The notes beneath the pieces are model-generated. The model ran no database searches and was not told the DNA's origin. It was given only the letters and a program-made list of their open reading frames with translations. The translations under genes and the position numbers were made by a program. Shown in pieces: positions 148 through 18,003 of a stretch of 21,933 bases of DNA. The stretch comes from a virus, in IMG/VR virus record IMGVR_UViG_3300047382_000059, positions 1-21,933 of that record; one strand, 5' to 3'. Numbering within the stretch: position 1 is the first letter of the stretch; each line of letters starts with the position of its first letter.

Positions 148-561
148 TTATCTCATTCGCGCTGCTTGTTCTAATAACTCCATCAATCCCATGTTTTGCA
201 TAGCACTACCGTATGGGTTAGCTTGTTGCATAGGCATACCTTGTTGCATTCCTTGCTGTATAGGCAGTCCTTGTGGCATTGCTTGCTGCATTGCTTGCAT
301 TTGCTCGATAGGCATATACTGAGCCTGTGACTGCACTAAAGGCGCGTGTGGCGCATCCATCCCACCCATACCTGACATAACAGGAGCTTCTGAAACCTGA
401 CCGTCAAACATCCTTTCTGGGGCGCTCATTATATTTTGCCCTGCCTCAGATAGCTTGCTCATAGCCTTGTCTTTAACCTTATCAACCGCCATGTCTTTAG
501 CTTTTTCCATAGCCTTTTCTTTAGCTTTTGCCATCGCTACTTTCATTGCTGCTTGTATCAT
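148..561 (-). CDS. Met/Gln-rich hypothetical virion-type protein
   Basis: A 137-residue protein of unknown function. Residues 1-38 form a Lys/Ala/Met amphipathic stretch with repeats of the type KAKEKAMEKAKDMAVDKV, probably helical. Residues 45-75 are Gly/Pro/Met-rich. Residues 80-125 are a Gln/Met repeat region (IEQMQAMQQAMPQG, then QQGMQQGMPMQQ). I count 22 Met residues, about 16 percent. No signal peptide or hydrophobic membrane segment is visible. The ATG at 561-559 follows the stop of the 382-residue gene by two bases, with GGGTAG upstream as a possible ribosome site. Low complexity and position among similar proteins suggest a structural, scaffolding-like or ejected internal protein. 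This is inference; no family is recognised. Confidence 0.7.
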   Translation of the reverse strand: MIQAAMKVAMAKAKEKAMEKAKDMAVDKVKDKAMSKLSEAGQNIMSAPERMFDGQVSEAPVMSGMGGMDAPHAPLVQSQAQYMPIEQMQAMQQAMPQGLPIQQGMQQGMPMQQANPYGSAMQNMGLMELLEQAARMR

Positions 562-563
562 AA

Positions 564-1712
564 TTAGCTACCCATTGCTAAGGTTAAATAGTCAAACAGC
601 CCAGGATTTTTCTGCGTAGTTTGCGACTGAGGAATCGTTGAAGCTCCTAGTGCTTGTGACAGATAGCCAATAGTAGCAGCTGGTGCGCCTGTATAGCCTG
701 CAAACTGTTGTTTAGCGGCATCAATTAACTGTTGCTGCATTAATTGCTGCATATTGCCTTGCTCACGCACATCACCAGTAAGCGTTCGACCCATGTCAAA
801 GCCTTGCTGTGACAATCTACCTAACTGACCAGCTGCTTGTAGTCTCTGCCCTGCACCCTGTAGTCCTGCACCTTGATTAGCCATTTGTGCCGCCATGCCT
901 TGCGACTGATTAGCCAAGCCTGCTTGTAACATTCTTTGCAAACCTTGCTGCTCAACATTCTGATTTGCCATGCCAGCCTGTAGCTGTCTAGCTAGACCTG
1001 TTTGCTCTGTCTGCTGATTGGCGCGTGACGCTGCAAGCTGTGTAGATTGGTTTGCTAAGTCTGCTTGCATTGTGCGCTGTAAATCTTGCTGAGCCATTTG
1101 TTGTGCATTCTGGAAGCCTTGCTGTCTTAACTGTCCAGCCATAGCCCCTGCACGGTCATAAAACGCTCTGTTAGACTCTGCCTGTGCAATTCCATGCCGA
1201 GACCCGCCAAAAGCTCCAGCTGCGCCCATTTTAGCGTTCTGTTGCATTTGCTGTATCTGTCTAGCACGGTCAAGGTCTGCCATGCTTTGATTAACAACCT
1301 GCGATTCATATGGATTTGTATACGCACTTAAATTAGTGCTTGCTAGTTGACCAGCAGATACGTCACCTGCTTGCGTCATTCTAGACCCCATTTCCGTACC
1401 AACCTGCTGCGTACCCATGCTTGTAGCAACCTGATCTGGTGTAACATTCATAGGCTGATAATTTGAAGCAGCTGTAGCGGCTTGCGTAGCATCTGTTAAA
1501 GCTGTAGCCGACTGCTGCATGACGTTAGGCGCAGTAGGGTTGTTCATTTGAGGTGCTGCGGGTGCTGCGGGTGCTGCTGGGGCGTCAGGGATAGTTTTGT
1601 GAACGTATGGCTGCCCTGCATTATTAGCACCGCCTTTGCCACCTGATGTTGGCGCTGTTGCTGGCTGTATTTGCTGCGCCCCTTGTATTCCTGCGTTTGC
1701 TGCTCCTGCCAT
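564..1712 (-). CDS. Gln/Ala-rich conserved phage structural-type protein
   Basis: A 382-residue protein. Residues 22-32 carry a SGGKGG motif also found at the N-terminus of the next-upstream product. Residues 45-54 are a Pro-Ala-Ala repeat linker encoded by 9-base DNA repeats. Residues 133-200 are the most family-like part: NPYESQVV, then a DLDRARQIQQMQQNAK helix, then AGAFGGSRHGIAQAE. I recognise this arrangement from uncharacterised proteins of many marine phage contigs. Residues 205-300 hold Gln-rich helical repeats built on LQAGLANQ-like units, probably coiled coil. The ATG overlaps the upstream stop (TAATG) and has a strong GAGGAAGAAG ribosome site. A role as an internal virion or tail-associated protein is inferred from context only. 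Confidence 0.75.
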   Translation of the reverse strand: MAGAANAGIQGAQQIQPATAPTSGGKGGANNAGQPYVHKTIPDAPAAPAAPAAPQMNNPTAPNVMQQSATALTDATQAATAASNYQPMNVTPDQVATSMGTQQVGTEMGSRMTQAGDVSAGQLASTNLSAYTNPYESQVVNQSMADLDRARQIQQMQQNAKMGAAGAFGGSRHGIAQAESNRAFYDRAGAMAGQLRQQGFQNAQQMAQQDLQRTMQADLANQSTQLAASRANQQTEQTGLARQLQAGMANQNVEQQGLQRMLQAGLANQSQGMAAQMANQGAGLQGAGQRLQAAGQLGRLSQQGFDMGRTLTGDVREQGNMQQLMQQQLIDAAKQQFAGYTGAPAATIGYLSQALGASTIPQSQTTQKNPGLFDYLTLAMGS

Positions 1713-2176
1713 TATCTTCTTCCTCTGCCGCGAGTTGACTTGTAAAACTCAGCCATCATGCTGTTAAACCTGTCTTGGTCTGTTAACAATTTGGTGTCTG
1801 CTGGATCAGGGTTGCCAAACAAGCTGTCGTAGATTGCTTGTTGCTCTGGGTTCTTTCTAGCTAATTCTTGCTGGGCTTGCTCAAATAGTGGGAAGGCGCT
1901 GTAGCCTTTCATGCCACCACCAAAGTCTTGCGCTTCTGGCATACCCTGCATAGGTGTAGATGGCGCAGATAGCCCAAAAGCACTAGCTGCATCTAGCTGA
2001 TTCTGCATGGCAGACATTTGCGTTGGGTTAACCGCAGCCAAGTCAGCACCCATGTAAGGCTGATAGCCTACTTGCTGTGCGATTTCTGACCGCGCTAAGT
2101 TTCGTTTTGTAGGCTCTTCTGCCCACTCTGGGATGCTTGCTGTTGTAGTATTGCTGCCGCCTTTGCCGCCACTCAT
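1712..2176 (-). CDS. Conserved hypothetical phage protein, SGGKGG N-terminus
   Basis: A 154-residue protein beginning MSGGKGGSNTTTASIPEWAE, followed by RSEIAQQVGYQPYMGADLAAVNP and later NQLDAASAFGL. This N-terminal pattern (Gly/Lys motif, Ser/Thr run, IPEW, GYQPYxGxDVA) resembles uncharacterised proteins that I associate with the structural regions of marine phages. The middle is Gly/Met/Pro-rich. The C-terminus is a charged helix (FNSMMAEFYKSTRGRGRR) with a strongly basic end that could bind nucleic acid. AAGGAG lies 8 bases before the ATG. It shares SGGKGG with the downstream 382-residue protein, so the two may be distant paralogues or partners. The function is unknown; a virion role is inferred. 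Confidence 0.75.
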   Translation of the reverse strand: MSGGKGGSNTTTASIPEWAEEPTKRNLARSEIAQQVGYQPYMGADLAAVNPTQMSAMQNQLDAASAFGLSAPSTPMQGMPEAQDFGGGMKGYSAFPLFEQAQQELARKNPEQQAIYDSLFGNPDPADTKLLTDQDRFNSMMAEFYKSTRGRGRR

Positions 2177-11327: not shown

Positions 11328-12011
11328 TTAGCTCCAGCGTACATGATTTGGTTGTTTAGAACGGCTTGTATCTAAGCCTAGCTTGCGTGTTCTTAATCTG
11401 TCGTGCTTGTATTCAGATTCAGCAGATGATGCGTTTACTCTCTGCACTGCTGCACCATACATCTGTGAGAACAATGCTAGTCTTTCGTCATCTTTTAAGT
11501 AGATAGCAGCGTGTATTAGTGAGCCGTATAAATATACGTCAGGGTGATCCTCTATCAGCCAGTTTGTGCTGCTAATATCGAGCTTCTGCAAATAAGACAG
11601 AACAATCTTATCGTCACTACGCGCTTTTGGCTGTGGGAATAATACATACTGGCCTGCGCCTGCATTCACAGAAAACGTGTAATACTGCGGTTCGCCAATC
11701 ATATTCTCACTGTTCATTTTGCGCTCATCTAGCGCGTTCTGTGATAAATACTCTAGCGGATGAAACTTGGTATAATCATTAATATCTGGATAATACTGGA
11801 CATTTTTAGTTTCTAGCCAGTCAGTAGGCAGAAAAACAAAATCATCAGTTATGGCTCGCAGAGATGTTGTTTCCATCTTCCAGTGACGCACATCGCGATT
11901 AATCTGACCCTCAGCCATATCAATAAAGGTTGGAATAACATCTGTTAGGTCATCCCGATTTAAAAAATCTGCAATGCCAGACTTTAATGTTAGTAATGAA
12001 TCAATTGCCAT
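11328..12011 (-). CDS. Head-tail adaptor protein (SU10 adaptor type)
   Basis: A 227-residue protein. The N-terminal helices (SLLTLKSGIADFLNRDDLTD, then IPTFIDMAEGQINRDVRHWK) are followed by a strand pair (TTSLRAITDDFVFLPTDWLE). This is the signature arrangement of the podoviral SU10-type adaptor that joins the portal to the tail. The centre contains the usual short beta domain (EPQYYTFSVNAGAGQYVLFP, then KIVLSYLQKLD). The C-terminal helices (DVYLYGSLIHAAIYLKDDER, then ALFSQMYGAAVQRVNASSAE) end in a basic tail (RLRTRKLGLD). Its length is normal for the family. GGAG precedes the ATG by about 8 bases. It follows the giant polyvalent gene rather than a portal gene, which is unusual. Confidence 0.8.
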   Translation of the reverse strand: MAIDSLLTLKSGIADFLNRDDLTDVIPTFIDMAEGQINRDVRHWKMETTSLRAITDDFVFLPTDWLETKNVQYYPDINDYTKFHPLEYLSQNALDERKMNSENMIGEPQYYTFSVNAGAGQYVLFPQPKARSDDKIVLSYLQKLDISSTNWLIEDHPDVYLYGSLIHAAIYLKDDERLALFSQMYGAAVQRVNASSAESEYKHDRLRTRKLGLDTSRSKQPNHVRWS

Positions 12012-12065: not shown

Positions 12066-15000
12066 TTAGTTTAACAAGCCTTGTGGCATCATGTTTTGCT
12101 GAGCTGCTTGCGCTGCTTTACGCCTTAAACCTAGCACATCGTACATACCTAATACGCCTAGTGCGCTTAGACCTGCTGCTGGCAATGCGTTGTCCTTTAG
12201 GTAGCCTTCTGGCAGTGACTGGTAGCCTTGCTGTGTGGCTTGCACCATGTCTTGTATAGATGGCGCGCCTAATAGCCCCTCATGCGTGTATGCATCTCTT
12301 AGATACGGTGCAGCTGCTTGTACTGCACTGGTTACGTTTTCCCCTATCTGCCCCTTTATCAGCTCTTCTTTTCTAGTGTCACCTTTACCAAAGTTCATTA
12401 AGCCCATTGGTGATAGAGACATACCTAGCTCTGCAAGCTGCTTCATTTTGTCGCCATATCTTTGCCCCATGCCTGCATCTGCTTCAGTAGGCGTAGCTTT
12501 TTCATATGCGCTCACAAACAAAGATGGAATTGTTGCAGCATCGCTTACTAAGCCAGTAACTGCGTCACCAGCAAGGCTCAATGCCGTTCTAGGAGCATCT
12601 AGCAAACCAGTTAGCGTATCACCTAGCTCTTCTCTTTTACGCGTCTTAGCGTCTCTAGCTAGCATATCTTCAATGGCAGCTCTATTCTCTTCTCTTTGCG
12701 TATCTGTGTCATCATAAACTACACGCATTCTTTCATCTTCTGCGTTTACATTAGACCTCATAGCGTCTATTGCGACTGGCGTTAAGCCAATTGTAGAAAA
12801 CATTTTCAAGCCATTCTTTTTCACATCAGCTTTCATTTCGTCAGTGAAAGGCAGATAAAAGTGGTCATCAGCACCCATCTGCTGTGTAGCTAGGTATTGC
12901 TTTGCCTCGTCAATGTCATCAAACTCTTCAAGCACATCCCCATCACGTACTACAGCATAATAACCGTCATCTAGATCATCGATACTATACTCGTCAGTAT
13001 TGTTGCGCCTCTCTACCTTAACGCCATACTGCTTGCCTATTTGCTCCAAGTGCTTGCGAAGGGTCTTGTTGTAGTATGGTCTTAGCTTCTTGCCTTCTAC
13101 CTGTGTATTGAAGTTTGACATCACGCCACTGTCATCGCCTTTTGCCACGGCTGCTTTAACTTCATCAATTATCTTGTCAGCAGCACCTTTAGGCATCATA
13201 GTTCTAAAGGCTTCCATGTCTTTTTCAATGTCCATGCTTAGCTGTTGATGCACTGTACCAACATCGCCTTGTCGATTCGTGATACCACTGAAGTCAAATA
13301 AAATTTCAGCCGCATCACCATCTGATTTAACAGTCTTCCAGCTGATATCATTAATAAACTGAAATTGATCTTTTGCTGCAAGCTGAGTATCGCCTGTGAC
13401 AATCCCTACACCATCCATGTTGTCGTCAACAGCATCAATGATTGTCTGGTTAACTAATGGTATGTGAGGTTTAGCTACTGGTGGCTGAGGCACTAATGCA
13501 AGCCCTTCGTCACTTCTGTTCATGCTATCTAAGCGCCTACTGATATCTGCCTGCTCAGCTAAATATGCATTAAATATGCCTTCTTTTTCATCAGGTGACG
13601 CATTTGCCATAGCCTTGTACTGGTTAACCTTGCTCTCATACATAGCGTCATACAGGTTGTCCATAGCTTCAACGTCTTTAACACCATAGTCAGGGTTTTC
13701 GGCACGCTGCACCCAATCTGACTGCACCTCTTCCATTAGCCTGTACTCAGTCTTCTTGCCAGTACGAGGATCAAACGTATTAACACGGTCAGTGGTTCTA
13801 ACGTGTCCGATAGCATTAGGATCTGTAAAGTGTGACGACTCAACAAATAACCTGTTTTCAGCTTGGTTGCGTAGCAACTCTAGGCGAGCTTTATCTGTTT
13901 GTAATTTTGTGCGTCTTGCTATCATCTCTTCCATTGGCACTTTAACTAGGTTGCCGTCAACATTGTCTAAGATGAATGATTCATTATCTATGGCGTTGTT
14001 TAGCTCGATTAACTCACCACTAAGCTGTGTTGATCTCTGTGTGTTCATGCTTATATATTGGTCAATCTGTTCGCCACTGGGGTCTGTTAAGACTTGATTC
14101 CTGTAGTTAGTAATATCACCATCTGATCTATCGGTACGAAAGTTTGGTTGCTTCTCATCTAGCAAGCCGCCAATCTCTTCATTAACGTCTGCTGTTGTTG
14201 CGCCATATGTTGACATTCTCTCATCAAAATAATCCTTATACTGCTCGCGCATTAAATCTACATCTGTCTGGTTAGGCTGCTCAGTGTAAAGTGATCTGTC
14301 AAACTTATATTCATTGTCTAATAGATACTGTGATACCTCTTCCTTGTCTAATGGTCGCTTACTATCAATTAGGTCTAGATTGTACTTCTCAATCTCATTA
14401 GGTTTAGCGCCATTGTTTTTAAGGTAGTTTGCCCAGCCTTGCGGAGTGTTCTTTTTAGGCGCATTAGGATCATCTAACATCTTTCTAGCAATAGATGGCA
14501 CTGCCGCAACTAACCCTGCTGCTTCTGCCTCTTCCTGACCGCCTAACAAACCTGTAGCAGCCACTGCTGTAGGCAATGCAACACCACGTAGTTTCTTAAC
14601 TGATATAGCTGAGCCATTAGGAATGTCTTTAGATGGTATCTTGGTTACTTCAAAGTTATCGCCCAGTATGCCTTGCACTTCATTTTGCAGCTCATCGCGT
14701 GTAAAGCCCTTCTGATAAGACCCTTTACTAGTCAGGAATGATGCTGGCTCATCCTGTGGAATAGCAGTCTTAGACTTCTTCAATTCGTTTACAGCGCTGG
14801 CTGAGCGTGTCTGAATAACAGCCATACCATTTGGCTCTAGTATGCTGCCAATGTTTTGCACGGCTGCTGTACGTGCGTCAGGTGGCAATACGTTCAATAC
14901 GTTAGTGCTAATTACCTTGCCATATGTGTTTTCTGGAATGTCTGCTGCTGACGAATATGTTGGCTTAAACGTGTCATCTGCAAATGGCTCAAAGGTATCA

Positions 15001-16274
15001 TCAAACCCAATAGATTTCGCGTTTAGACCAAACCCTGCACCATAGTCTAAAGACTTACCAGTAGCGCCCTGATCTGTTAGATACTTATCTGCTGCCTTAG
15101 CTGTTGGCACTGTATTGGCACGCTGTGTAGTTTGCGCTAACTTAGGTATGATTGCTGATTCTGCTTCTTCTGGGTTTAAAAAGTTAATAGCCGTCAATCC
15201 AGCCCCTGCTAACACAGGAAGCAATCCTAAATTAGCAAAGCCACCTTGTTTCTTGCTTACATTAAATCCACGATCTTCTAAACTACGCAATAAAGGCTCG
15301 TCAATTAAACCGCCATAGTAGTTAACTTCCATAGAGCGTCTAGGCGCTGTCTTTGTGCTAAGAAAGTCTTTGCCTTGCGGGTCTTCAACAAACGATCCAT
15401 CTGCTCTTCTAGCCCTAGCATATCTATTAGGGTTTAGGTCGATAGCTGTTACATCAGTATCTAGTGTACCCATGTACTTACCAGCTAATGCTGATGGGTA
15501 TGTAGGATTGCCAGCACCAGCCAAAGCATCCACAGATGTGTCTATAAGACCTACGTTTTTGAATCCCATTACTGGCTGGCTTAACTGGCTTTGGTCTGCA
15601 ATGGCTACCCGCGTTTGGGGTAAGGTTATGCCGCCTACATTCCTAAACTTCGTGTCCATATCACGCTGTACAATCTTGCGCGACTTGTCAGGTAATGCGT
15701 CAAACTGTGCGCCACTTTCAGGGTTATCAATGCCCTTCCAGTTGGGTACGTGTAGCTTCATATAGCCATCTACTTCATTTTTAAAAGTCTTAGGCATATT
15801 CTCTGAAGCGTAACTAAACATTGTTTTGCCTGTCATACCTGCAAAGTCAGAGCCAGTAGGCGACATAGTCCACGGCATCAATACTGGCTGCTTACCATAC
15901 TCGGTCTCTAACTCTCTGGCAGCTTGCACCATCTTTGGAACAACACCTTCCCCAGAAGCCCATAGATTAGGGTTCTCAGTGAAGTCTCTCATGAAGTCTT
16001 GCCCACCTGTTAGGTTTACAGGGTAAGCTAATGATTTGTCGCCAACACCAACTAATTGACCGCCAGCAGCAGTTCTATCTGACATTGTTGTTAGATATGG
16101 AAAGCCCTCTAGCTCAGAAAGGCTAAGTGGCTTCATTGGGATTGTTTCTCTGCCTTGAACGACAGGAGTAGCTAAAGGCGCGTCACTTACACGATCAGGG
16201 TTTTTAAATCTTGGGTCAAATTCTTCTGGATCAAGTATTCTACCAAGTATACCTATGACATCGTCTTTTAGCAT
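12066..16274 (-). CDS. Giant phage polyvalent protein with methyltransferase-like domain
   Basis: A 1402-residue multi-domain protein, probably packaged and ejected with the DNA. Residues 55-335 are a first domain (AGGQLVGVGDKSLAYPVNLT, then FMRDF, WASGEG, TMFSYASENMP) of a kind I see in other phage giants but cannot name. Residues 351-374 are a hydrophobic linker ending PEEAESA. Residues 390-560 look like a class I methyltransferase. Residues 565-587 are a second hydrophobic linker ending EEAEAAG. Residues 600-810 are charged and helical. Residues 810-1165 form the well-known polyvalent-protein domain (SSHFTDPNAIGHVRTTDR, EEVQSDW, ISWK, YYNKTLRKHLEQIGKQYGV, then DEMKADVKKNGLKMFS). The C-terminus has Ala/Leu-rich segments (1230-1256, 1361-1383). 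AGGGGTG precedes the ATG. It lies directly after terL. Confidence 0.85.
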   Translation of the reverse strand: MLKDDVIGILGRILDPEEFDPRFKNPDRVSDAPLATPVVQGRETIPMKPLSLSELEGFPYLTTMSDRTAAGGQLVGVGDKSLAYPVNLTGGQDFMRDFTENPNLWASGEGVVPKMVQAARELETEYGKQPVLMPWTMSPTGSDFAGMTGKTMFSYASENMPKTFKNEVDGYMKLHVPNWKGIDNPESGAQFDALPDKSRKIVQRDMDTKFRNVGGITLPQTRVAIADQSQLSQPVMGFKNVGLIDTSVDALAGAGNPTYPSALAGKYMGTLDTDVTAIDLNPNRYARARRADGSFVEDPQGKDFLSTKTAPRRSMEVNYYGGLIDEPLLRSLEDRGFNVSKKQGGFANLGLLPVLAGAGLTAINFLNPEEAESAIIPKLAQTTQRANTVPTAKAADKYLTDQGATGKSLDYGAGFGLNAKSIGFDDTFEPFADDTFKPTYSSAADIPENTYGKVISTNVLNVLPPDARTAAVQNIGSILEPNGMAVIQTRSASAVNELKKSKTAIPQDEPASFLTSKGSYQKGFTRDELQNEVQGILGDNFEVTKIPSKDIPNGSAISVKKLRGVALPTAVAATGLLGGQEEAEAAGLVAAVPSIARKMLDDPNAPKKNTPQGWANYLKNNGAKPNEIEKYNLDLIDSKRPLDKEEVSQYLLDNEYKFDRSLYTEQPNQTDVDLMREQYKDYFDERMSTYGATTADVNEEIGGLLDEKQPNFRTDRSDGDITNYRNQVLTDPSGEQIDQYISMNTQRSTQLSGELIELNNAIDNESFILDNVDGNLVKVPMEEMIARRTKLQTDKARLELLRNQAENRLFVESSHFTDPNAIGHVRTTDRVNTFDPRTGKKTEYRLMEEVQSDWVQRAENPDYGVKDVEAMDNLYDAMYESKVNQYKAMANASPDEKEGIFNAYLAEQADISRRLDSMNRSDEGLALVPQPPVAKPHIPLVNQTIIDAVDDNMDGVGIVTGDTQLAAKDQFQFINDISWKTVKSDGDAAEILFDFSGITNRQGDVGTVHQQLSMDIEKDMEAFRTMMPKGAADKIIDEVKAAVAKGDDSGVMSNFNTQVEGKKLRPYYNKTLRKHLEQIGKQYGVKVERRNNTDEYSIDDLDDGYYAVVRDGDVLEEFDDIDEAKQYLATQQMGADDHFYLPFTDEMKADVKKNGLKMFSTIGLTPVAIDAMRSNVNAEDERMRVVYDDTDTQREENRAAIEDMLARDAKTRKREELGDTLTGLLDAPRTALSLAGDAVTGLVSDAATIPSLFVSAYEKATPTEADAGMGQRYGDKMKQLAELGMSLSPMGLMNFGKGDTRKEELIKGQIGENVTSAVQAAAPYLRDAYTHEGLLGAPSIQDMVQATQQGYQSLPEGYLKDNALPAAGLSALGVLGMYDVLGLRRKAAQAAQQNMMPQGLLN
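12780..13847 (-). other. Polyvalent-protein domain with EVQSDW motif
   Basis: Codons 810-1165 of the giant gene. Markers in order are HFTDPNAIGHVR (815-826), LMEEVQSDW (846-854), GVGIVTGDTQLAAKD (955-969), ISWK (977-980), a Gly/Lys-rich segment leading to LRPYYNKTLRKHLEQIGKQY (1064-1083), and a closing DEMKADVKKNGLKMFS (1145-1160). In other phages the equivalents read HxxxPNVLAHVR, EEIQSDWHQ, YD-LP-KK-G and TPEMRxxVxxGxPLF. Its biochemical function is not established. A short insertion, GYYAVVRDGDVLEEFDDIDE, lies at 1104-1123. Confidence 0.7.
14595..15107 (-). other. Class I SAM-methyltransferase-like domain in the giant protein
   Basis: Codons 390-560. A helix (TAKAADKYLTDQGATGK) precedes SLDYGAGFGLNAK (408-420), a typical motif I Gly loop after an acidic strand end. 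KVISTNVLNVLPP (453-465) resembles the NxVLNVI motif IV of phage-associated and phosphorothioation-associated putative methyltransferases. It is followed by AVQNIGSILEPNGMAVIQTR, the usual helix and strand five. The end GFTRDELQNEVQGILGDNFE resembles the C-terminal part of such folds. The region between motif I and IV is short, and the acidic SAM-ribose contact is not certain. DNA or another nucleic acid is the likely substrate, by inference. Confidence 0.65.
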
Positions 16275-16301
16275 GAAAACACCCCTGTTAATTAACGGCT
16301 G

Positions 16302-16313: not shown

Positions 16314-17600
16314 TTAAACGATTCCTTGAAGGTTTCGTCTAATAGGTTCACCCCAGTTGGTTGTCTCCTTGTAACCTATGGCTAGATACCTCATTGCATC
16401 AGCACAGTGGCTTGTCCAGTCGTGTAATGGTCTGCTGCGCCATGTCATGCCTTTCTCATCGTATTCACGCCTATATTGACGTAAAGCATCGACACCTCGC
16501 TCACACTTGTCCTTGTCGAACCAGCAGCGTGGTATCAATGACCTGACAGCCTGTATACCATCATCAACATTAAGCTGCGGGGCAATATGTACTGGCCTCA
16601 CCCCCAAACCATCTAATGTCTCTAAGCGTGATCTACCAGTGCCTAGCTCCCTGACCCTTACATCATGTGGCAGTATGTGCTGGTCGTATACGTAGCCCTT
16701 CTCACCTAATACCCTAGCGTAATGGTCTAGACCTACACCGCTGCTTTCATAGTAGTCTATAAGGCGCACCTCAGCCCCTACCATCTGTGCAAACCAGATA
16801 GAGGTACTATCGCCTACCCCTAAATCCCAAGCCGTTACAACGCCAAGAGATCGGTCATACGGCACATTGGTAATACGCTCATTATGTGTAGCTTCACGCA
16901 TCTCTACAGCAAAGTATGCACCCTCTGCATGGATGAGCATCTGCCCTTCCCAGATATGGTCATACAGGTCTGGTCTGTTCTTTTTGTCTTCTAGGCGCTC
17001 ATTCTCTAGCACCTTCGGGAAGAAAGGATTGTCACGCCAGTTAATCTCAGCGATCTTCATATCAGTTGGTGGATGAACCCTGAACCGTCTGTGCGTAGCT
17101 GAGTGCTTTGTCTCTGGATTCCACGTAACCCATATCTCAGAGTCGTCTTCACGTACAGTTGGTATTAGCTTCTGCCATGCACTATCGGACACACCTTCTG
17201 CTTCGTCTACCCAGCATAGGATGATACGTGCTTTAGATTTGATTGAGTCTAGGTTGCGTCTAAGGCCAGCGAACACGTAATTGATTCTACCGTCTTTAGA
17301 GCGTATGTACTTCTCACCTAGCTCATAGTAGTCAGAAAGGAATTTAACGCCTCTAATGGCGCTTTTGACCTCTTCTAAGGATGATTCATCAAGTGAGTTA
17401 AGGTGTTCCCTTGCACAGAGTATCTGACCCTGCTTTCCTTCCATACCCCATTGGTAACCACGTACTGCTGTCATCAATGCGAATGATCGTGTCTTAGCTG
17501 ACCCTCGACCACCATATGCACATCGGTATCTGGCTTCACCCTCAAACAGATCAACAATCTTAGGTGGTAGATTAATCTCTACTGTATCAGTCTGACTCAT
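16314..17600 (-). CDS. terL: Terminase large subunit
   Basis: The packaging motor ATPase and nuclease, 428 residues, close to the usual length. The ATPase part has Walker A at residues 30-37 (GGRGSAKT), the coupled Q-motif-like region upstream, and Walker B at 127-133 (ILCWVDE with catalytic Glu133), followed by a WNP motif (160-162). The nuclease part has TAWDLGVGDST with Asp259, HDVR at 312-315, and a C-terminal DWTSHCADAMRYL with Asp394 and Asp401, as in Terminase_3/6 nucleases. The protein uses concatemeric phage DNA and the portal. The gene overlaps terS by 14 bases and lacks a strong ribosome site (GGTAG at best), suggesting coupled translation. It ends 7 bases before the next TATAATC box. 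Confidence 0.97.
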   Translation of the reverse strand: MSQTDTVEINLPPKIVDLFEGEARYRCAYGGRGSAKTRSFALMTAVRGYQWGMEGKQGQILCAREHLNSLDESSLEEVKSAIRGVKFLSDYYELGEKYIRSKDGRINYVFAGLRRNLDSIKSKARIILCWVDEAEGVSDSAWQKLIPTVREDDSEIWVTWNPETKHSATHRRFRVHPPTDMKIAEINWRDNPFFPKVLENERLEDKKNRPDLYDHIWEGQMLIHAEGAYFAVEMREATHNERITNVPYDRSLGVVTAWDLGVGDSTSIWFAQMVGAEVRLIDYYESSGVGLDHYARVLGEKGYVYDQHILPHDVRVRELGTGRSRLETLDGLGVRPVHIAPQLNVDDGIQAVRSLIPRCWFDKDKCERGVDALRQYRREYDEKGMTWRSRPLHDWTSHCADAMRYLAIGYKETTNWGEPIRRNLQGIV

Positions 17601-18003
17601 TAGACTGCGCTACCAGTTTAATAACTGTCGGCTTAAACGTGTCGTCTGAAGATGTATGGTCTATCTGCTGCTTATCACCATACTTACGTGGTGACATTCT
17701 AGCTACCTTCCACTTGCGTGAATCTATCTGTAACTTAGCCCTAGCTAGCTCACTTGCTTCTGCTGCTTCTGACAGCTCATCAGCTATATCTACAATCTGA
17801 TCTGCGTAGTAATCAGCCTGACAATCCCTTGCGCGCGCGTACTGCTCCGAAAAGGTCACTTTGTCACTATCAGTAAGCCACTTCATCAACGTACTCATAG
17901 CAGGCATAGCATCATCCCTACAGATTTGTCTTGCACTCTCACCAGCTGCTAAACGTCTGCAAATGTCATCGCCTAAGTCAGTTGTGTATTTACTAGGTCT
18001 CAT
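17587..18003 (-). CDS. terS: Terminase small subunit (Sf6-type)
   Basis: DNA-recognition subunit of the packaging terminase, 138 residues. Residues 20-42 (AGESARQICRDDAMPAMSTL, then MKWL) form the helix-turn-helix that binds the packaging site. Residues 50-90 are the oligomerisation helices (FSEQYARARDCQADYYADQI). The signature KLQIDSRKWKVARMSPRKYG follows at 90-109, typical of Sf6-like small subunits. The tail is acidic/polar and contains DDTFKPT, a string also present in the giant protein. The start overlaps the stop of a 55-codon ORF (ATGA), and the end overlaps terL. Length and gene order fit the family. Confidence 0.93.
   Translation of the reverse strand: MRPSKYTTDLGDDICRRLAAGESARQICRDDAMPAMSTLMKWLTDSDKVTFSEQYARARDCQADYYADQIVDIADELSEAAEASELARAKLQIDSRKWKVARMSPRKYGDKQQIDHTSSDDTFKPTVIKLVAQSNESD

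What the first reader, a model, noticed from the sequence alone, without database searches (positions are those of the whole stretch)
12066..16274. A giant polyvalent protein directly follows terL where a portal gene would be expected
The 1402-codon gene carries at least three domains, including the known but unsolved EVQSDW-type polyvalent domain, and it has its own TATAATC promoter-like box. Phage polyvalent proteins are thought to be packaged and injected to protect incoming DNA or to attack host defences. A version placed between terL and the adaptor, with portal and capsid genes displaced, marks an unusual genome layout. It may be the cargo of this particle and the most likely novel system in the window.
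Basis: partly seen in the sequence, partly recalled or inferred. Interest (0 to 1): 0.75.

Follow-up and report, generated by a model that had tools for sequence, protein, structure and literature searches.

The report
Swappable-module cargo protein of marine podophages
This marine virus of bacteria carries a very large multi-part protein, probably packed in the particle and sent into the host with the DNA; relatives swap its parts like cassettes at a recurring joint sequence, which shows how such effector proteins are shuffled.

Summary
The ORF is real: 1402 aa at 12066-16274 (-), directly after terL and before the SU10-type adaptor. The window is a 21.9-kb IMG/VR fragment. In near-identical relatives portal, scaffold and capsid lie downstream of the ejection-like genes, starting about 2.8 kb beyond the window's left end. 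The displaced layout belongs to the lineage and does not depend on the giant gene.

Three modules: an N-domain (res 35-340), a >573-member phage family absent from Pfam, PHROGs and NCBIfam; a class I SAM methyltransferase (376-563; fold match Z 14); and the EVQSDW domain (595-1165), absent from Pfam, with a tentative GNAT-like core.

The terL-adaptor interval is a cargo slot. Relatives carry different combinations there: two N-domain variants, MTase, ART, LPD23-peptidase, GNAT, lysozyme, separate ORFs, or nothing. Module switches fall exactly at a joint made of a Gly/Ala-rich hydrophobic stretch plus EEADA: 10 of 10 junction pairs change identity there, and 63 motifs were found against 4.6 expected, none inside a domain. 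An extended -10 box after terL is kept across cassette types.

Most likely it is a polyvalent, virion-carried effector. Injection is inferred, not shown. It is a new variant of a known kind.

The parts
12066..16274 (-). giant cargo ORF, 1402 aa
   Evidence: 92% identical full-length relative L002
16301..16310 (-). extended -10 promoter-like box TGGTATAATC
   Evidence: kept after terL in relatives with different cassettes
16282..16286 (-). ribosome-binding site AGGGG
   Evidence: sequence
15255..16172 (-). N-domain (residues 35-340), unnamed phage family
   Evidence: AF2 pLDDT mostly above 90
15150..15230 (-). joint 1 (residues 349-375): hydrophobic stretch + NPEEAESA
   Evidence: AF2 pLDDT under 50
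14586..15149 (-). class I SAM methyltransferase module (residues 376-563); motif I DYGAGFG at residue 410
14520..14585 (-). joint 2 (residues 564-585): VALPTAVAATGLLGG + QEEAEAA
12780..14492 (-). EVQSDW domain (residues 595-1165), tentative GNAT-like core
13713..13733 (-). EEVQSDW motif (residues 848-854)
12069..12779 (-). C-terminal helical tail (residues 1166-1402) with a third hydrophobic stretch and PQGLLN end
   Evidence: low confidence
16314..17600 (-). terL, left boundary of the slot
17587..18003 (-). terS (Sf6-type)
11328..12011 (-). SU10-type adaptor, right boundary of the slot

Best explanation
The gene is the occupant of a dedicated cargo slot between terL and the adaptor of a marine podophage lineage. 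It encodes a polyvalent-type effector built from exchangeable modules: N-domain, SAM methyltransferase, EVQSDW (possible acyltransferase) and a helical tail. It is probably expressed late from its own extended -10 promoter, packed in the head and ejected with the DNA, so that its enzymes act on host targets at the start of infection. Modules are exchanged between phages at joints made of a Gly/Ala-rich hydrophobic stretch followed by EEADA; the same kind of tail ends some free-standing modules. Shown: the ORF, its place, the module content, the swapping exactly at the joints, the conserved box. Inferred: packaging, ejection, enzyme activity and targets, and what the joints do in the protein.
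For: Slot of varied content bounded by conserved terL and adaptor. Polyvalent repertoire in equivalents of the slot: ART-PolyVal (L262), LPD23, DUF6782/M78 peptidase-like, GNAT, lysozyme, MTase. EVQSDW occurs in 2,000-2,600-aa proteins with LPD22 or LPD38. In Pelagibacter phage HTVC028P the EVQSDW protein gp34 lies among the internal virion proteins, just before the putative internal virion protein gp33, with a joint-like element (GLFADNEAEG) before the domain. The MTase family sits next to portal, capsid or internal virion protein genes in Roseobacter, Microcystis, Mycobacterium and Rhodobacteraceae phages. Class I MTase fold, Z 14.2. At 10 of 10 joints compared, 60-aa identity jumps from 12-30% on one side to 67-100% on the other. 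63 joint motifs against 4.6 (at most 7) in shuffles; 0 of 63 inside a module against 29 expected. Same box upstream of different cassettes.
Against: No virion proteomics for any member was found. The window protein itself has no match to a catalogued LPD or ART domain. No named peptidase is in the window protein. The slot is empty in some relatives, although L059, L061 and L065 carry N- and/or EVQSDW-domain genes upstream of terL instead. The substrate of the MTase and the chemistry of the EVQSDW domain are unknown.
Confidence: 0.68

Rival explanations
1. It is mainly a structural internal or ejection protein (head core or DNA-ejection conduit). The N-domain is the working part and the enzyme modules are secondary.
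For: The N-domain is the commonest module beside terL in this lineage, and free-standing 400-aa versions lie upstream of terL-portal in other phages. Gly/Ala-rich hydrophobic stretches also occur in the annotated DNA ejection protein of C72C1.
Against: Separate ejection-like genes already exist in the genome (window 148-2176; the 617-aa L094 gene, phrog_5880). The N-domain is absent from the slot of some relatives (L025, L030, L031, L075). The catalytic motif of the MTase is conserved across distant phages.
Confidence: 0.2
2. It is not a virion protein but an intracellular early or accessory enzyme complex that merely sits in the late operon.
For: It has its own promoter-like box. No direct evidence for packaging was found.
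Against: It lies inside the packaging and tail gene block. The modules recur near head or ejection genes in unrelated phages.
Confidence: 0.1
3. The EEADA joints are only recombination scars or flexible linkers, kept because fusions of formerly separate genes retain the C-terminal tail of each module, with no role in the protein. (This rival concerns the joints only and can hold together with the best explanation.)
For: Free-standing modules end in similar hydrophobic tails (L252, L253, L171, L202). Separate-ORF versions exist (L069). AF2 gives low confidence at the joints.
Against: The hydrophobic parts differ in sequence but keep length, composition and the acidic small-x-A end across non-homologous neighbours. 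HTVC028P, a phage of different genome layout, has one too.
Confidence: 0.45
4. The giant replaced the portal in this position.
For: Related podophages have portal right after terL.
Against: Relatives with nothing in the slot still have portal far downstream (L061, L065). Portal is a separate 697-aa gene in the lineage (phrog_1216, 1.7e-143).
Confidence: 0.02

Closest known systems
Phage polyvalent proteins (Iyer et al. 2017, PMC5512222)
   Same: Large multi-domain proteins encoded near phage structural genes, mixing unrelated enzyme domains; equivalents of the slot hold ART-PolyVal, LPD23, peptidase-like, GNAT and lysozyme modules.
   Different: The window protein's N-domain and EVQSDW domain are not in Pfam. 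The MTase is not the LPD36-N6A-MTase-SWI2/SNF2 type. A term search of that paper's main text found no linker or joint motif (no 'linker', no 'transmembrane').
P1 DarB / DarA system (defence against restriction)
   Same: Virion-carried MTase proposed to act on incoming DNA (PMC5512222).
   Different: No adenine-MTase (D/N/S)PP(Y/F/W) motif and no helicase; fold nearest UbiG, TylM1 and Trm9-like MTases.
Pelagibacter phage HTVC028P gp34
   Same: EVQSDW domain (E 2.8e-66) preceded by a hydrophobic stretch + NEAEG; lies among internal virion protein genes.
   Different: Other phage group; no N-domain or MTase hit; different gene order.
Polymorphic toxin systems with a marker motif before the variable end (from my own knowledge: CDI VENN, Rhs DPxGL; not tested here)
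   Same: A short conserved motif marks where variable enzyme modules are exchanged.
   Different: Here the joints occur between several successive modules of a phage protein, and include a hydrophobic stretch. No homology is claimed.
Sulfitobacter phage pCB2047-A, Paracoccus phage KLEP18-1, Rhizobium phage RHph_Y1_10
   Same: Closest named TerL relatives (46-52% identity); P22-like short-tailed module order.
   Different: Portal follows terL directly or after small ORFs; no giant gene between terL and adaptor.

Membership tests
Phage polyvalent protein (Iyer et al. 2017) | Domains of disparate biochemical activity in one polypeptide | tested here: met
   Class I MTase + N-domain + EVQSDW domain in the window protein; further enzyme modules in slot equivalents
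Phage polyvalent protein (Iyer et al. 2017) | Encoded with phage packaging or structural genes | tested here: met
   Between terL and adaptor in independent contigs
Phage polyvalent protein (Iyer et al. 2017) | Catalogued LPD/ART-type domain present (supporting rather than defining) | tested here: inconclusive
   None in the window protein; LPD23 and ART-PolyVal in slot equivalents, LPD22/LPD38 with EVQSDW elsewhere
Phage polyvalent protein (Iyer et al. 2017) | Packaged in the particle and transferred with DNA | not testable with these tools
   Needs virion proteomics and a translocation assay; only neighbourhood evidence
Class I SAM-dependent methyltransferase | Rossmann-like MTase fold | tested here: met
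   AF2 pLDDT mostly 80-95 over the core; Foldseek E 1e-7, VIA Z 14.2 over 170 residues
Class I SAM-dependent methyltransferase | SAM-binding motif I and acidic residue after strand 2 | tested here: met
   DYGAGxG and FEP conserved in 11 distant members
DNA amino-methyltransferase (DarB/Dam type) | (D/N/S)PP(Y/F/W) catalytic motif | tested here: not met
   Alignment A3 has NVLNVxPPxxR instead
GNAT acyltransferase (EVQSDW domain) | GNAT fold | tested here: inconclusive
   VIA list dominated by GNATs (AtaT Z 9.4, 130 aligned, rmsd 4.0), but Foldseek best E only 0.078 and about 9% identity
GNAT acyltransferase (EVQSDW domain) | Sequence-profile relation to Acetyltransf_1 | tested here: not met
   hhalign of EVQSDW profiles against 24 GNATs gave probability 0; so not filed as a GNAT

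The most novel reading that the evidence does not exclude
The hydrophobic+EEADA joint is a standard interface of phage cargo proteins, acting both as the exchange point for modules and as a processing or membrane-translocation signal (it obeys the small-x-Ala pattern of signal-peptidase sites), so that one gene delivers several separately released effectors per particle. The N-domain, found by the hundreds beside terL, would be the packaging or delivery module of this system.
Probability: 0.2. Interest if true: 0.78.

Novelty: new variant of a known kind. Interest (0 to 1): 0.5.

Why it matters
Polyvalent proteins are widespread, but how their modules are joined, exchanged and released is unclear. 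This locus gives a natural series (same slot, same flanks, same box, different modules) with a defined joint, so exchange and release can be tested directly. It also defines two large unnamed phage domain families (N-domain, >573 relatives; EVQSDW, >337 relatives) and ties one to an internal-virion-protein neighbourhood in a cultured SAR11 phage.

Tried and rejected
Giant as a portal replacement: rejected. Artefact of a misassembled ORF: rejected by a 92% identical full-length relative and further relatives of other make-up. Catalogued family for the whole protein: PHROGs and NCBIfam give none; Pfam gives only weak MTase hits; PADLOC gives a weak mad2 match to the MTase region (E 4.4e-4), not taken as evidence of a defence gene. 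EVQSDW as a GNAT by sequence: not supported. Solved-structure profile search for the N-domain and EVQSDW: no significant relative. Host: the genome scan found only two distant TerL matches (47% in a beta-proteobacterial MAG), so the host is unknown. Prohead protease as the cutter at the joints: no such gene was recognised among the 10 structural-block genes of L094 scanned, so this was not pursued. Mass-spectrometry papers for cultured relatives: none found that covers these proteins.

Full report
1. Observation. The ORF 12066-16274 (-) is 1402 codons with an ATG start, an AGGGG ribosome-binding site and TGGTATAATC between it and terL. TerS, TerL and an SU10-type adaptor flank it. The window is the complete stored record, a 21,933-bp virus fragment, so absence of portal in it says nothing by itself.

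2. Where the portal is. Contig 3300017772_000064 (L016 and L093; TerL 99-100% identical) and 3300017709_000011 (L018 and L094) show the continuation beyond the window's left end: ejection-like genes, then portal (697-698 aa; phrog_1216, 1.7e-143), scaffold and capsid. The window's last complete gene (148-561) corresponds in place to the 161-aa L093 gene ending at 11784; portal starts at 14555, about 2.8 kb further on. Relatives with nothing between terL and adaptor have the same layout (L061, L065). Named relatives (Sulfitobacter, Rhizobium, Paracoccus phages) have portal soon after terL. So portal-scaffold-capsid has moved in this lineage, independently of the giant gene.

3. Cargo slot. Among the 80 TerL relatives the interval terL-adaptor is empty (L057, L059-L063, L065, L076), or holds a single giant of varied make-up, or separate ORFs (L069: EVQSDW-type 619 aa, MTase 228 aa, N-domain 596 aa). 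Some empty-slot genomes carry N- and EVQSDW-domain genes upstream of terL instead (L059, L061; N-domain alone in L060, L065). Other modules found in the slot: ART-PolyVal, LPD23, DUF6782/M78 peptidase-like, GNAT, phage lysozyme, DUF7178. This is the repertoire of phage polyvalent proteins (PMC5512222).

4. Modules. N-domain: invariant D56, G81, S97, F134, R189, Y249 over 25 divergent members (numbering of that alignment, which starts at protein residue 11); at least 573 relatives in IMG/VR; no Pfam, PHROG, NCBIfam or PDB relative; folded with pLDDT mostly above 90. MTase: 47% identical to part of Roseobacter phage CRP-738 gp40; DYGAGxG motif; class I MTase fold; no DNA amino-MTase motif. EVQSDW domain: at least 337 relatives, as ~760-aa single proteins often just upstream of terL-portal or within proteins of over 2,000 aa together with LPD22 or LPD38; conserved H, N, H, R and EExQSD residues; the model's structural neighbours are mainly GNATs (Z up to 9.4), but Foldseek is not significant and profiles do not match. 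I therefore call it GNAT-like only tentatively.

5. Joints. Between modules lies a Gly/Ala-rich hydrophobic stretch followed by an acidic EEADA-type end. With one fixed pattern, 63 copies occur in 141 cargo proteins against a mean of 4.6 (maximum 7) after shuffling; the rate in other proteins of the same loci is about five times lower, and the clearest exact hits there are other occupants of the slot. The pattern fixes the final Ala, so that residue is not independent evidence. None of the 63 lies inside a recognised module (29 expected by random placement) and 44 are within 35 aa of a module edge. In ten pairwise comparisons the switch from unrelated to near-identical sequence falls at the motif every time. 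Some free-standing modules end with a similar tail, and HTVC028P gp34 has one (GLFADNEAEG) before its EVQSDW domain. That the joint is cleaved or inserts in membranes is a guess based on its resemblance to signal-peptide h- and c-regions.

6. Promoter. TGnTATAAT(C) follows the terL stop in relatives with N-domain variants A and B, other proteins, and in modified form before the adaptor in slot-empty relatives. A consensus scan needing a -35 box did not report it; extended -10 promoters do not need one (general knowledge).

7. Function. Most likely a polyvalent effector carried in the particle. The best neighbourhood evidence is HTVC028P, where the EVQSDW protein gp34 lies among the internal virion proteins, just before gp33, and the recurrence of the MTase family beside portal, capsid or internal virion proteins in four other phage groups. 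No step after gene expression is shown experimentally.

8. Novelty. The kind is known. New here are a slot with a standard joint, two large unnamed domain families, and the observation that the modules trade at that joint. Hence 'new variant of a known kind'.

Noticed in passing
L034:14727-17486 (also L027, L030, L031, L035): In a sister group the adaptor gene carries a tandem array of a 306-bp (102-aa) unit, 9 copies in L034; adaptor lengths 633, 837, 939 and 1245 aa differ by multiples of 102.
   Followed up: partly
L320:9796-16959 (Dolichospermum phage Dfl-JY45): A 2387-aa protein contains two EVQSDW domains in tandem.
   Followed up: no
window:14634-14993: PADLOC model mad2 (MADS defence) matches the MTase module (residues 428-547) weakly, E 4.4e-4.
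   Followed up: no
L164-L243, L276-L310: In other phages single N-domain genes (about 400 aa) and single EVQSDW genes (about 760 aa) occupy similar positions 1-2.5 kb upstream of terL and seldom occur together.
   Followed up: partly
C-termini of cargo proteins, e.g. window residues 1395-1402: Several cargo proteins end in a PQGLL-like tail (NMMPQGLLN, DDPVPQGLLS); possible C-terminal packaging tag.
   Followed up: no
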